DNA from: Pseudobutyrivibrio sp.
GTDB taxonomy: Bacteria; Bacillota; Clostridia; Lachnospirales; Lachnospiraceae
Direction: 5' to 3'
Length of the DNA stretch: 49,451 nucleotides
NCBI GenBank assembly: GCA_024697025.1
Contig: JAILGH010000041.1
Coordinates: forward strand, 1-49,451
The notes beneath the pieces are model-generated. The model saw nothing but the letters and a program-made list of their open reading frames with translations, did not search any database and was not told where the DNA came from. Both the position numbers and the translations under genes were made by a program. This document shows, one piece after another, positions 19,675-34,634 of this stretch (the stretch's first letter is position 1; the number at the start of each line of letters is the position of its first letter).

Positions 19675-20280
19675 GCATTATTATGTTAATTTATATCGCT
19701 CCCCCCCCCAAGTGCCTGCGGCACGTAGAGGGCAAAACAATTTCGCTAAGATTATAGATTTTCTTAGTTCGAAAAGTGAGCTTCGCTGGGGTGTCCTTTC
19801 ATCGCTTTTACAATTCGAAGGAAGTGTGTGTCCCCTTACGGACAATTCACAACTATAAATTGATTTCAAAACTGGCTCATATAATTGCGCCGCGGCTACG
19901 TTTGCTAAGTGTATTTACGAAGTTATTTTTGTGGGTTTTGGCACCGTGATACAAATCAGTCCATTTCATAGTATCACTCTCGGCGCCGTCCGTGGCGCCT
20001 CATGCCAAAACCCTACAAAAACAACTTCTAATGTACTAAGCACACTTCGCATCGCTCTGCAATAATAATGAGCCAGTTTCGAAATCATATTTTTAAAATT
20101 TAATTATTGTCCGTAAGGGGACCACAGTTACGATAGAATTGTAAAACATTGAAAGAACACCCCATAATAAAAGAAGCGAAACTTCGAACTATTAGAAAAT
20201 CATAATCTTATGCGAGGTTTTGCCATCTACGTGCCGCAGGCACTTGGCGGGGGGCAATAGAAGATGAGTAGAAAAATGCA
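19675..20280. repeat. E1: 606-bp imperfect inverted repeat (long hairpin element)
   Basis: The whole stretch between two terminators folds back on itself around a centre near 19978. The outer block 19710-19738 pairs with 20217-20245 at 28 of 29 positions. Inner paired blocks include GGGGTGTCCTTTCA (19788-19801) with 20150-20163, CCCCTTACGGACAAT with ATTGTCCGTAAGGGG, and ACTGGCTCAT with ATGAGCCAGT. The tip carries two small hairpins, GTGATAC...GTATCAC and GGCGCC-GTCCGT-GGCGCC. A run of nine C lies at 19701-19709. No credible ORF or transposase is present. It shares motifs and tip design with E2 (32874-33475), in opposite orientation. It may be a structured RNA or a foldback element. I recognise no named family. 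Confidence 0.85.
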
Positions 20281-30595: not shown

Positions 30596-32866
30596 ATGCT
30601 TCAAGGAAGAAAGCTATTTAAGATTTCCTTGATGTGTGTGATTTTAATTGCCTTAAGTGCTTATGGCCCCTGGGATTTCCTGGGGGTCTATAATAAAGCT
30701 GAGGCGGCCCAAAGTTTTCTTGAAACAGGGCAAAAGGTTACAGCTTTTGGTACAGTCATTCAAAAGGAAATCAAGAGTGATTATTATCTTTATTCTGTAG
30801 ATGATGCTACCGTATATACGAATACCGGTAAGCTTCATAAAACATCTTTTATTTTTAAAACAGATTCAAATTCTATCCCAATTAATAGCAAATTAAATAT
30901 TTCAGGTTTGGTTAAGCATTTTTCGAAAGCAAGAAATGATGGGGCTTTTGATATGGAAAAATATTATTTTTCTAAAGGTTTATTTTTTGAGTTGGAAAAT
31001 GCGGAGATTAAAGCATGTAAGAAGAGTGACATTGGTGTTTGCGAATTCTTGCAAGCTGTCAGGACTGAAATTATAGCAATATATGAACAGTATTTAACGG
31101 GTGAAGAAGCTGGCTTTTTATCTAGTGTAGTTATGGGTGAACGAGGTGGACTAGAAAATGAGCTAAAGGAGTTGTTTCAAAGAGTAGGAGTAGCTCATGT
31201 TCTGGCAGTATCTGGACTTCATGTATCAGTTATTTGCATGTTTGTATATAGATTTTTTAGAAGAAGGCGGCTAGGGTATGTTACTAGTGGAATCCTTTCA
31301 GGGGCGCTTGCCATAATTTACGGCATTATAACTGGTGGTAGCGTATCTTCTATTAGAGCAATAGGGATGTTTATATTGTTTCTTGTGGCTCAAATGTTGG
31401 GAGAATGCTATGACATGTTAACGGCCATGGCTATAATGGCCTTAGCATTATTGGTGCCTAATCCTTTGTATATTACTAATTCAAGCTTTATCTTTTCCTT
31501 TGGAGCGGTGCTAGTGATTTGGTTTATTGCACTGCCAATGGCTGATCGCTATAAAAGGATTTATGGCAATGAAAATAAGTTTTTGGAAAAAGCAATTTCT
31601 GGATTAGTATTTTCAGCAGGGATATTTGTAGGTATGGTTCCGGTTACAACTATGTTTTTCAACCAGATTCCTATTTATTCTATTTTGCTTAACATGATTA
31701 TACTTCCGCTGATGCCACTGCTTCTTGGACTAGGGTTGATTGCTGGAATAGTAGGGCTAATCTTTCCTGTATTAGCGGAATATTTATTATTAGCATGCCA
31801 TTATATTATTTATTTTTATGAGTGGCTTTCTAGCTTGGTTAGTAAATTGCCAGGGGATGCAACTATCGTTGGACACAGGAGTGTTTTTGCAATAGTAGTT
31901 TATTATTTAGTTTTGCTTGTGGTGTTGTATTTCTTAAAGAATTTGTCTAGTGCTTTTGAGGGCAAGGAATGTGGCGGCAAGTCAATAAGGCGTAAGGGAA
32001 TTTTACTTGGTATTTCAGTAATTTTATGTGTTGCTATTTTTATAATGCCAAGGAAAGGGGAGTTTGAGATTGATTTTCTTGATGTAGGTCAAGGAGATGG
32101 AATATATATTAACTCTGGAGATGGTGTGAGGTTTTTTATTGATGGTGGAAGCAGCTCTAACCAAGACGTTGGTGTGTATACAATACTTCCATTTTTGAAA
32201 TATAAGGGTGCTAACGCCATTGATTATTGGTTTATTTCGCACACGGATAATGATCATATTTCTGGTATGGTGGAGCTTTTGGAGGATGGATATAACATTA
32301 AAAATATCGTATTTACGAAGTATATTCCAGAGGATGATAATCTTGCTAAGATTAAAGAGCTAGCCAAAGAGCAGGGGACCAATATTTTATACATGAATTT
32401 AAATGATAGAATTGGAAGTAAACACTTAAGGTTTAGATGCGTTTATCCAATGAAAGGGGCAGGTGATAGTCAAGATTGTGAGGTAGATGTAAATGATTAT
32501 TGTCTTGCCTTGGTTATGGAGTACGACTCAAATCTTGATAAAAAAGTAGATTACAAAGCCTTTTTTGGAGGTGATTTATCTATGGAGCAAGAAGCAGCTA
32601 TAGTGGAATCAAAGTTAGTTGGCAAAGTTGATCTGTTGAAGGTGAATCATCATGGCAGTAGGTTTAGCTCAGACAGCGGATTTTTAGCTGCCTTATCACC
32701 TGAAAATGCAGTGATTAGTTGTGCCAAGAAAAATATGTATGGGCATCCAAGCCCTGAGGCAGTGACAAGAATTGAAGATGCCAATATAAAGATTTTCTAC
32801 ACTATGGATTGTGGTCGAATCCAAGTAACTCCCGACCATATCGAAGGATTCATCTGGAGCTACTGA
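30596..32866 (+). CDS. comEC: ComEC/Rec2 DNA uptake channel
   Basis: 756 residues with all three ComEC parts. After an N-terminal membrane segment comes an OB-like extracellular domain (about 40-135). The competence core has many membrane segments (about 185-470) and holds VLAVSGLHVSVICMF and FSFGAVLVIW. The metallo-beta-lactamase domain (about 490-756) has DVGQGDGIYI, SHTDNDHISGM and KVNHHGS. The lactamase metal ligands are present, so a nuclease role is possible. It moves single-stranded DNA into the cytoplasm during transformation. It lies 21 bases after the GerMN gene, in the same unit as comEA. Confidence 0.92.
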   Translation: MLQGRKLFKISLMCVILIALSAYGPWDFLGVYNKAEAAQSFLETGQKVTAFGTVIQKEIKSDYYLYSVDDATVYTNTGKLHKTSFIFKTDSNSIPINSKLNISGLVKHFSKARNDGAFDMEKYYFSKGLFFELENAEIKACKKSDIGVCEFLQAVRTEIIAIYEQYLTGEEAGFLSSVVMGERGGLENELKELFQRVGVAHVLAVSGLHVSVICMFVYRFFRRRRLGYVTSGILSGALAIIYGIITGGSVSSIRAIGMFILFLVAQMLGECYDMLTAMAIMALALLVPNPLYITNSSFIFSFGAVLVIWFIALPMADRYKRIYGNENKFLEKAISGLVFSAGIFVGMVPVTTMFFNQIPIYSILLNMIILPLMPLLLGLGLIAGIVGLIFPVLAEYLLLACHYIIYFYEWLSSLVSKLPGDATIVGHRSVFAIVVYYLVLLVVLYFLKNLSSAFEGKECGGKSIRRKGILLGISVILCVAIFIMPRKGEFEIDFLDVGQGDGIYINSGDGVRFFIDGGSSSNQDVGVYTILPFLKYKGANAIDYWFISHTDNDHISGMVELLEDGYNIKNIVFTKYIPEDDNLAKIKELAKEQGTNILYMNLNDRIGSKHLRFRCVYPMKGAGDSQDCEVDVNDYCLALVMEYDSNLDKKVDYKAFFGGDLSMEQEAAIVESKLVGKVDLLKVNHHGSRFSSDSGFLAALSPENAVISCAKKNMYGHPSPEAVTRIEDANIKIFYTMDCGRIQVTPDHIEGFIWSY

Positions 32867-32873
32867 AAACTTT

Positions 32874-33475
32874 GTTAATATTCACAGTCTTATTTTTCTT
32901 AAATGGCATCTCCTTCTACATAGGGATAGGTTCAATCACAGAATAATGATTCTCTATAGTTGCTGCATGTAGCTTTCTTTATTGTGGGTGTTCTTTCAAT
33001 TATTTGCACTTCTATCGCTACAGTATGTATTGCTCAGACACACTCTATTTAAAGTAAGACTCCCCTATAAAGTTATATGAACCCTAGTTACCTGATTTGT
33101 GAAATGAGTCTAGTGGAATAGAAAATGAGTTTTGAAAGATATGGGCAGACCGAGCCATGGACGGCGAGGTCAAGGAAAGTTGAACACGGATGTGAATCTT
33201 GATTGGTGCCCATATCTACAAAACTCATTTTCTTAATTACACTTGATGAATGTAACATGAAGGCAACTAGGGTTCATATAATTTATAGGCGAATTAATGT
33301 AACCTTCAAGTGTCTGAGCCATACATACAGTAGCTACAAAGTGCAAAATCAATGAAAGGACACCCACTTAAAGCTACATTTGCTGCAACAAGAGAATCTA
33401 TCATTCTGTTCAAATTCACCTATCCCTATGTAGAAGGAGATGCCACCTCAAAATATATAGACTGTGAATAGTAAC
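32874..33475. repeat. E2: 602-bp imperfect inverted repeat (long hairpin element)
   Basis: It starts seven bases after the comEC stop. The arms pair along their length around a centre near 33175. The ends 32874-32889 and 33460-33475 pair at 15 of 16 positions, and 32904-32931 pairs with 33418-33445 over 28 bases without a mismatch. 33021-33041 pairs with 33310-33330 (20 of 21), and 33073-33089 with 33265-33281 (17 of 17). The tip has two hairpins. The first is GACC-GA-GCC, loop ATGGAC, then GGC-GA-GGTC; the second is a TCAAG...CTTGA stem. GTGGGTGTTCTTTCAAT and the tip loop correspond to E1. No ORF of substance, no transposase. Confidence 0.88.
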
Positions 33476-33521: not shown

Positions 33522-33575
33522 TTAGGGGATGGAAATTATTTTATGTCAGTTTATATAAAAGGAGAATTAATTGTT

Positions 33576-34634
33576 ATGAGTAGTAGAAGACAAAAGAAGA
33601 GAACTATTAATTTAGTGCTAATTGTTGTTGCGCTTTGCTTTATAGTGGGAGCATCAGTTTATTTTATTGCTTCCAAGAAAACAGATGTAAGTGATAACAG
33701 CAATGCAGCAACAGAAACCACAAATACGGATGTTCAGCAGACACAAGAAGCAGGTGATGCTTTGGTAGATGATACAGTGCCACAGGAGCAACCTTCCGGT
33801 GATGCAGGACTTTCATTTGCAGATTTAGCTAAGTATACATATTGTTTCTCTAGTGGTGCTGGTGCCTGGGCCGATGGTTTTGACATTGAAAAAGATGGAT
33901 TTTTCCATGGCGAGTTTCATGATTCTGACATGGGGGATGCTGGCGATGATCATCCAAATGGAACTTGTTATTTCTGTCAATACGAGGGACATTTTGTAGA
34001 CATTCAAAGAGTTGACGAATATACCTGCAAGATGAAACTTGCAGATATTCAAGCAGTTGGTGTGAAAGAAGATTATATTGAAGACGGTGTTTTGAATGTC
34101 TTTTCTAGTCCATATGCATTGAATAACGCAGATGAAATTGACATTTATTTGCCAGGCAAGCCAACTAGCGAAATTTCAGAAGAAATCCTCACTTGGGCTG
34201 GGCTTAATTATGGTGATGATAAGATAGACAAGTTGGAGTATCCTATCCTTGTTAATGTAAACGAAAATCAGGGTATCGCTGCTTCTGATAGAATGGATCC
34301 TAAGGAAGAGGCAGAATTTGATTATAATAATGCATCAGATTCTTGTAACTATATTGATATGCAGATTAATTCTGCAACTTCACAACAAGAGAAGAATGAA
34401 TTATCTGCTACTAAAGCCAAAGCTATGGATAATATGCTTAATAGCATCTGGATTTTAGTTAAGTATAATACTGATGAGGATACATTTAATAAGGCTTTAG
34501 AGGAGCAGCGTAGTTGGCTCAAGGATAGAGATGATAAGCTTAAGGCTTATTCAAAGGATGGTATGGACTACAACGAGACCCTTGCTAAGCTCACATTGGA
34601 CCGATGCAAGGACCTTTTAAAATATTTTAACTAG
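33576..34634 (+). CDS. Membrane-anchored extracellular protein with LprI-like C-terminal domain
   Basis: 352 residues from the ATG at 33576, chosen because AAAGGAG lies 11 bases upstream; an in-frame ATG at 33543 has no ribosome site. A positively charged start is followed by one membrane segment (about 11-31). Then come a Thr/Gln/Asp-rich linker, a middle domain with HPNGTCYFCQYEGHF, and a helical C-terminal domain. That last part (LEEQRSWLKDRDDKLKAY, then LTLDRCKDLLKYF) resembles the LprI/DUF1311 family, extracytoplasmic domains linked to lysozyme inhibition. Function here is unknown. The protein would sit outside the cell, anchored in the membrane. Confidence 0.65.
   Translation: MSSRRQKKRTINLVLIVVALCFIVGASVYFIASKKTDVSDNSNAATETTNTDVQQTQEAGDALVDDTVPQEQPSGDAGLSFADLAKYTYCFSSGAGAWADGFDIEKDGFFHGEFHDSDMGDAGDDHPNGTCYFCQYEGHFVDIQRVDEYTCKMKLADIQAVGVKEDYIEDGVLNVFSSPYALNNADEIDIYLPGKPTSEISEEILTWAGLNYGDDKIDKLEYPILVNVNENQGIAASDRMDPKEEAEFDYNNASDSCNYIDMQINSATSQQEKNELSATKAKAMDNMLNSIWILVKYNTDEDTFNKALEEQRSWLKDRDDKLKAYSKDGMDYNETLAKLTLDRCKDLLKYFN

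What the first reader, a model, noticed from the sequence alone, without database searches (positions are those of the whole stretch)
32874..33475. E2, a second fold-back element of almost the same length behind comEC
602 bp, with arms that pair along their whole length: 28 of 28 at 32904-32931/33418-33445, 20 of 21 at 33021/33310, and 17 of 17 at 33073/33265. It begins seven bases after the comEC stop and the next promoter starts 18 bases after its end, so it forms a discrete cassette. Two such cassettes in one 49-kb window suggest that the genome carries many.
Basis: seen in the sequence. Interest (0 to 1): 0.8.

Follow-up and report, generated by a model that had tools for sequence, protein, structure and literature searches.

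The report
Jumping DNA hairpin with mirrored arms
A 602-base stretch behind a DNA-uptake gene of a Pseudobutyrivibrio bacterium is one copy of a family of inserted DNA hairpins whose two halves stay mirror images while their sequence changes, and whose centre was catalogued until now as an RNA of unknown function.

Summary
The 602-bp palindrome is real and far above background. Its apex (33097-33258) is Rfam's TwoAYGGAY 'RNA' (RF01731). The family is dispersed: 15 hits in this genome, hits in 26 of 28 other genomes of the genus (Pseudobutyrivibrio) and in 51 of 398 phylum genomes. Members like E2 end in GTTACTATTCACAG inverted repeats; over 45 elements with such ends an 8-bp target duplication shows (11 agree at 6 or more of 8 bases, 1.3 expected), though E2's own is not visible. 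Two clean orthologous empty sites were found.

New: (i) at 18 conserved insertion sites orientation is random between species (8 same, 8 flipped, 2 mixed); (ii) between distant species the core is closer to other sites of its own genome than to its orthologue; (iii) outer stems are unrelated between sites yet complementary within each copy, both arms having changed together; (iv) only 3 of 29 genomes of the genus have SbcD, of the palindrome nuclease SbcCD, above cut-off. The apex keeps a strand-specific fold. No parent transposase was found. How the arms stay matched is inferred.

The parts
32874..33475 (.). E2, whole palindromic element (602 bp)
32874..32889 (+). left terminal repeat GTTAATATTCACAGTC
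   Evidence: family ends
33460..33475 (-). right terminal repeat, reads GTTACTATTCACAGTC on the minus strand
32890..32931 (+). outer stem, left arm: private to this copy
33418..33459 (+). outer stem, right arm: complementary to the left arm, 28 of 28 at 33418-33445
32932..33096 (+). inner left arm, shared with other copies
33259..33417 (+). inner right arm, shared with other copies
33097..33258 (+). apex: Rfam RF01731 TwoAYGGAY, 57.4 bits (gathering 43)
30596..32866 (+). upstream gene, comEC-like (PF03772)
33543..34634 (+). downstream gene, C-terminal LprI domain (PF07007)
19701..20254 (.). E1, second element of the family in the window; lacks the GTTACTATTCACAG ends
19893..20052 (-). apex of E1: RF01731, 51.1 bits

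Best explanation
E2 is a non-autonomous mobile DNA element, a large fold-back MITE-like element, whose centre is the TwoAYGGAY motif. SHOWN for the family: shared terminal repeats, an 8-bp target duplication on average, presence and absence at orthologous sites, many copies, and no coding capacity in E2. INFERRED: a cut-and-paste (DDE-type) transposase encoded elsewhere moved it; none was found. SHOWN: some copies stay at one site through speciation, the part inside the outer stem is found in either orientation relative to the flanking genes, and cores within one genome are alike. INFERRED: both come from recombination, flips between the two arms of one copy and homogenisation between copies. 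SHOWN: at orthologous sites the two arms change together far more often than independent change predicts. INFERRED: one arm serves as template to correct the other (template switching across the hairpin). INFERRED: loss of SbcCD in most of the genus lets such long palindromes persist. The apex keeps a strand-specific fold, probably recognised as single-stranded DNA or as RNA; by what is unknown.
For: Copies in this genome 15, in 29 of 61 genomes of relatives. 8-bp duplication: 11 of 45 end-bounded elements agree at 6 or more of 8 bases, shuffled mean 1.33, 0 of 5000 shuffles as high; the peak is at length 8 and offset 0 only. Empty sites: G006 lacks stem and element at the sites of L241 and L239; G025 lacks both at the site of L022/L023, where the gene ends also differ. 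Orientation: 26 pairs syntenic on both sides, 13 same and 13 flipped; exact inversion inside a collinear stem in L224/L242. Cores: 27 of 51 comparisons closer to a paralogue, 23 of 23 in the 12 distant pairs. Arms: copy-to-copy identity 0.53-0.61 but own-arm match 0.63-0.93 at 240-330 nt from the centre in seven genomes; matching changes on both arms 262 against at most 45.8 expected, 13 pairs. SbcD above cut-off in 3 of 29 genomes of the genus. Few sites between divergent genes: 9 of 93, with 52 tandem and 32 convergent.
Against: No transposase with these ends was found. E2's own flanks do not show the duplication (3 of 8), and 34 of 45 elements agree at 5 or fewer bases. E1 and many copies in G002 and G022 lack these ends. 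G003, G016 and G020 have SbcD and still 8-10 hits each. The apex is strand-asymmetric, which a purely DNA-level palindrome does not need. The double changes could also be selection for pairing; the pairs are related and the alignments uncertain.
Confidence: 0.72

Rival explanations
1. A functional structured RNA, for example a CsrA-sequestering sRNA as proposed in print for TwoAYGGAY, that has multiplied in the genome; the long arms are part of the RNA or stabilise it.
For: RF01731 is curated as RNA. A CsrA-binding role is proposed in passages of PMC4333381. CsrA is found in 28 of 29 genomes with the motif. The apex mismatches are strand-specific (G.A 518 against C.T 49, G.G 197 against C.C 9), the Rfam strand folds better in 72 of 77 core clusters, and ANGGAY occurs on the Rfam strand in 133 of 171 cores against 3 on the other.
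Against: CsrA is also in 23 of 32 genomes without the motif. No G-U excess in the arms. Orientation relative to neighbouring genes is random and flips, so no fixed host promoter can be used. Arms show no strand preference of the same kind: their G.A/C.T lean is opposite (295 against 547 inner, 233 against 324 outer).
Confidence: 0.15
2. The inner element inserts into pre-existing host palindromes or terminator stems; the private outer stems are the targets, which explains why they differ from site to site.
For: Bare palindromes with GTTACTATTCACAG-like ends of 35-80 bp exist. An IS in G003 sits inside such palindromes. The boundary between shared and private sequence is rather sharp.
Against: Orthologous sites without the inner element also lack the outer stem (three of three sites read). 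The 8-bp duplication lies outside the whole palindrome.
Confidence: 0.08
3. A host-benefiting bidirectional terminator or insulator kept between genes; spread is incidental.
For: 84 of 93 sites lie between tandem or convergent genes and only 9 between divergent ones; some sites are kept across species.
Against: Insertions that spare promoters survive anyway. Copy number varies from 0 to 38 among genomes of the genus. The sites read were absent in close relatives without other change in L241 and L239.
Confidence: 0.05

Closest known systems
TwoAYGGAY RNA, Rfam RF01731 (Weinberg et al. 2010, PMC2864571; passages seen)
   Same: The apex of E2, E1 and the other copies matches the curated model above its gathering score.
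   Different: The published motif is a structured RNA of about 168 positions. Here it is the centre of a 550-750-bp mobile palindrome that flips; Rfam types it Cis-reg, which random orientation does not support.
MITEs (non-autonomous elements of DDE transposases)
   Same: Short terminal repeats, fixed-length target duplication, multi-copy, non-coding, intergenic.
   Different: Palindromic along the whole length, outer stems private to each copy, inner part inverts, parent transposase unknown.
REPINs / REP palindromes with RAYT transposases (Bertels and Rainey 2011, PMC3116915; outline and abstract seen)
   Same: Dispersed extragenic hairpins, non-autonomous.
   Different: Some twenty times longer, end repeats with 8-bp duplication, and no Y1_Tnp gene in this genome or in G022, which has 38 hits.
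Eukaryotic Foldback elements (recalled, no call)
   Same: Long inverted repeats making up most of the element.
   Different: Different domain of life; no relationship tested.
Clostridiales-1 RNA, Rfam RF01699
   Same: One 192-bp element with the same ends (L145) matches weakly, 25.3 bits against a gathering score of 48.
   Different: Below threshold, and only 1 of the 4 loci holding that element in the scan was listed at E up to 0.1; not a claim of membership.

Membership tests
Rfam RF01731 TwoAYGGAY | match above the curated gathering score (43 bits) | tested here: met
   E2 57.4 and E1 51.1 bits
Rfam RF01731 TwoAYGGAY | two loops with AYGGAY-like bases on the given strand | tested here: inconclusive
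   A N GGA Y occurs twice or more in 80 of 171 cores, once in 53, not at all in 38
CsrA-sequestering sRNA | transcribed and bound by CsrA | not testable with these tools
   only motifs and gene presence are available
cis-regulatory RNA (Rfam type of RF01731) | fixed orientation relative to the regulated gene | tested here: not met
   13 same and 13 flipped among 26 two-sided orthologous pairs; tandem genes: motif codirectional 22, opposite 30
MITE of a DDE transposase | terminal inverted repeats | tested here: met
   E2 ends; 48 end-bounded elements found, 45 kept
MITE of a DDE transposase | target duplication of fixed length | tested here: met
   8 bp for the group, 11 of 45 agree at 6 or more of 8; not visible at E2 (3 of 8)
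MITE of a DDE transposase | no coding capacity, multiple copies | tested here: met
MITE of a DDE transposase | autonomous parent with the same ends | tested here: not met
   exact-end search of 29 genomes gave only non-coding elements and one IS whose own ends differ; ends with mismatches were searched in the own genome only
REPIN/RAYT | RAYT or related Y1 transposase in the genome | tested here: not met
   PF01797 absent from this genome and G022; 11 of 29 genomes with and 14 of 32 without the motif have it

The most novel reading that the evidence does not exclude
TwoAYGGAY is not primarily an RNA but the centre of a self-mirroring mobile palindrome: after insertion each copy's arms are continually re-templated on one another, so every site evolves a private, self-complementary stem, while the centre flips freely and is converted between copies; lineages that lost SbcCD can carry dozens of such 600-750-bp palindromes.
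Probability: 0.35. Interest if true: 0.82.

Novelty: new variant of a known kind. Interest (0 to 1): 0.66.

Why it matters
It recasts an orphan Rfam family, catalogued as an RNA since 2010, as part of a mobile DNA palindrome, and offers a natural system in which arm-to-arm correction, inversion and conversion between copies of long palindromes can be studied in bacteria that mostly lack SbcD. It also warns that covariation inside inverted repeats can come from DNA copying and need not mean RNA structure, which matters for RNA discovery by covariation.

Tried and rejected
IS as parent: a 1.7-kb IS in G003 (PF01609) begins right after GTTACTATTCACAG, which first looked like a shared end. Its true ends are CAATGTCATTAAGTTAAG, and in other genomes it lies beside what look to me like halves of terminator hairpins, so it uses the palindrome as a target; rejected. 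SbcCD breaks as driver of conversion: most genomes of the genus have no SbcD above cut-off; rejected as the general driver. RAYT as current driver. RNA-level selection on the arms: no G-U excess. The apex G-U against A-C count depended on the set: 31 against 52 in the first subset, 161 against 103 in 153 loci, 50 against 45 with one core per 90% cluster; purine mismatches there are strongly strand-specific, so I do not claim that the apex is DNA only. Decayed gene: longest open stretch 61 codons. Source of the replaced block in L030/L222: not found in other fetched loci apart from one 12-mer. A pattern scan of genome contigs for end plus inner boundary gave 0 hits; the second scan named one record, Pseudobutyrivibrio sp. 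YE44. Literature: (Butyrivibrio, palindromic, repeat element) 0 papers; the rows listed (part of the hits) held no title describing this element; searches list 5 of 7 and 7 of 9 papers holding TwoAYGGAY or AYGGAY; one search was for Clostridiales-1.

Script faults and drops: one search used a wrong denominator and was redone; one search stopped after its first part and the rest was redone; one search failed and was redone; the output was cut. Three of 48 end-bounded elements were dropped before the count (two composites sharing an end, one duplicate orthologous site). The 153 loci are not all copies: 20 of G022's 38 hits and part of several other genomes were used, and several fetched loci (contig ends, duplicates, some single loci) were left out.

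Full report
Observation. The 602-bp palindrome at 32874-33475 is as described. Its score of 142.5 compares with a 99th percentile of 28.2 over 489 windows of the contig. Two of the three quoted pairings are exact; the third is 19 of 21. The gene before it is comEC-like and ends seven bases earlier. The longest open stretch inside is 61 codons.

What it is. Rfam places a TwoAYGGAY motif (RF01731) at the apex of E2 (57.4 bits) and of E1 (51.1 bits). The genome has 15 matches, 14 above the gathering score. Three further stretches read later are, by eye, family members or parts of them that this search did not list: a copy that has lost its apex (L137), a copy on contig 65 (L119) and half a copy at a contig end (L115). 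Of 61 genomes of relatives 29 have it: this genome, 26 of 28 others in the genus, 2 of 8 other members of the family, 0 of 24 others in the order. In a draw of 398 genomes from the phylum 51 have it, 34 above cut-off (these two larger searches use stricter filters).

Anatomy. From outside in: terminal repeat GTTACTATTCACAG(TC); an outer stem of about 40 bp or more; inner arms with an asymmetric start; an apex of about 160 nt. E1 and many copies in G002 and G022 lack the terminal repeat but share the rest. In genus g5 (G032) the element is shorter, about 280 bp, with other ends (AACTTCC...GGAAGTT). The same terminal repeat bounds a 192-194-bp two-hairpin element and bare palindromes of 35-80 bp.

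Mobility. Behind comEC, G006 has about 70 nt between the apparent stop and the next start codon, against 676 here; the stretches printed for seven other species show other sequence. At the sites of L241 and L239 (G025) the orthologous spacers of G006 lack element and stem. At the site of L022/L023, G025 lacks both, but there the gene ends differ as well. Over 45 end-bounded elements the flanking 8-mers agree at 48% of bases, against 28-37% at other lengths and offsets; 11 of 45 agree at 6 or more positions (shuffled mean 1.33, 0 of 5000 shuffles as high). L021, L063 and L179 agree at 8 of 8. The signal is weak in the ten 192-194-bp elements (36%) and absent at E2 itself (3 of 8). A fixed-length duplication with terminal repeats is the signature of a DDE transposase (established knowledge); which one is unknown. 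The IS tested has other ends and inserts into hairpins.

Life after insertion. I compared flanking genes of 153 loci from 23 genomes. Twenty-six pairs are syntenic on both sides, at 18 sites by my grouping of that list: apex orientation relative to the genes is the same in 13 pairs and flipped in 13 (8 sites same, 8 flipped, 2 mixed); no two-sided pair was inconsistent. One-sided matches: 13 same, 17 flipped, 8 inconsistent. E1's site is shared, on the argininosuccinate-synthase side only, with G012 (same), G015 and G020 (flipped). In L224/L242 the flanks are 95-98% identical, the outer stem is collinear and the part inside is inverted. Assembly error is unlikely to explain all flips: G012, in two contigs, is in three of the flipped pairs (L208/L255, L212/L269, L257/L268).

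Cores. In 12 distant pairs the 160-nt core is 57-76% identical to its orthologue, and in all 23 available comparisons it is closer to another site of the same genome, 20 of them at 0.90 or more. In 12 close pairs (0.94-0.99) none of 24 is; in two pairs at 0.87 all 4 are. Overall 27 of 51. That is concerted evolution, on a scale longer than the splits of the closest species.

Stems. In seven genomes of the genus copy-to-copy identity falls from 0.75-0.99 in the first 30 nt from the centre to 0.53-0.61 at 240-330 nt, about the level of one copy's arm against another copy's opposite arm (0.48-0.64), while each arm still matches its own partner at 0.63-0.93 (shuffled 0.41-0.61; in G032 the element is shorter and both fall together). 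In 13 same-orientation orthologous pairs both arms carry the same change in 262 columns; at most 45.8 are expected if arms change independently (related pairs, alignment-dependent, and one pair has none). In L030/L222, with flanks 97% identical, a block of about 25 bases differs between species but matches within each copy. The simplest reading is copying from arm to arm; selection for pairing is the alternative.

RNA or DNA? If the arms were selected as RNA on the Rfam strand, G-U should exceed A-C mismatches. It does not: 877 against 964 over 153 loci, with 61 loci one way and 75 the other, and 118 against 100 in 19 loci from other genera. I ran no positive control with a known RNA. The apex differs: G.A 518 against C.T 49, G.G 197 against C.C 9; the Rfam strand folds better in 72 of 77 core clusters (Rfam chose that strand, which biases this). 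In the arms the G.A to C.T lean is the other way: 295 to 547 inner, 233 to 324 outer; copies are related, so these are not independent counts. So one strand of the apex has a conserved fold, as RNA or as single-stranded DNA, and the arms do not follow that pattern. A CsrA-binding role has been proposed in print (passages of PMC4333381). CsrA is in 28 of 29 genomes with the element and in 23 of 32 without.

Tolerance. SbcCD cleaves hairpins and removes long palindromes in E. coli (established knowledge; a passage of PMC3733652 says so). SbcD scores above cut-off in 4 of 29 genomes with the element (one, G032, with an internal stop) and in 17 of 32 without; in the genus 3 of 29. The own genome has only a match below cut-off (49.9 bits). 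This fits tolerance of long palindromes, but it is largely one clade, the cut-off may miss divergent SbcD, and G003, G016 and G020 carry 8-10 hits each despite SbcD. It speaks against SbcCD breaks as the usual cause of conversion.

Judgement. The finding is real and the mobile-cassette reading holds. The kind (non-autonomous palindromic mobile element) is known. The combination of private mirrored stems, free inversion, homogenised centre and an Rfam 'RNA' as apex did not appear in the rows listed by my searches of the held library.

Noticed in passing
L288-L315 (28 hits in 9 genomes: G000, G001, G002, G003, G009, G014, G015, G042, G044): Ends CAATGTCATTAAGTTAAG of an IS with a DDE_Tnp_1 transposase (transposase read in G003 only). 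Many hits lie beside what look like halves of terminator hairpins, and in G003 five of five lie beside GTTACTATTCAC-type palindrome ends or parts of them.
   Followed up: partly
L120 (own genome, contig 77), L145, L148, L151, L155, L156, L161, L166, L170, L181: A 192-194-bp two-hairpin element with the same ends as E2 in several genomes; L145 matches Rfam Clostridiales-1 weakly (25.3 bits, gathering 48).
   Followed up: partly
L114 (G013), L099 (G010), L088 (G015), L091 (G008): Arrays of short inverted repeats (CTACTGCC...GGCAGTAG or TAGATAGTAG type) of some hundred bases behind comEC or before the next gene in relatives.
   Followed up: no
genus genomes G000-G028: SbcD (TIGR00619) above cut-off in only 3 of 29; G012 has two fragments below cut-off on its second contig.
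   Followed up: partly
L137 (own genome, contig 3): A copy of the element that has lost its TwoAYGGAY apex but keeps arms and ends.
   Followed up: no
L185 (G002), around base 397: A further multi-hairpin insert of about 120 bases nested in the left arm of one copy.
   Followed up: no
L066 and L068 (G036): Two RF01731 motifs in inverted orientation about 240-300 bp apart at two places.
   Followed up: no
G000 contigs 33, 35 and 82 (ends): Contigs end inside copies of the element, so copy counts in draft genomes are probably too low.
   Followed up: no
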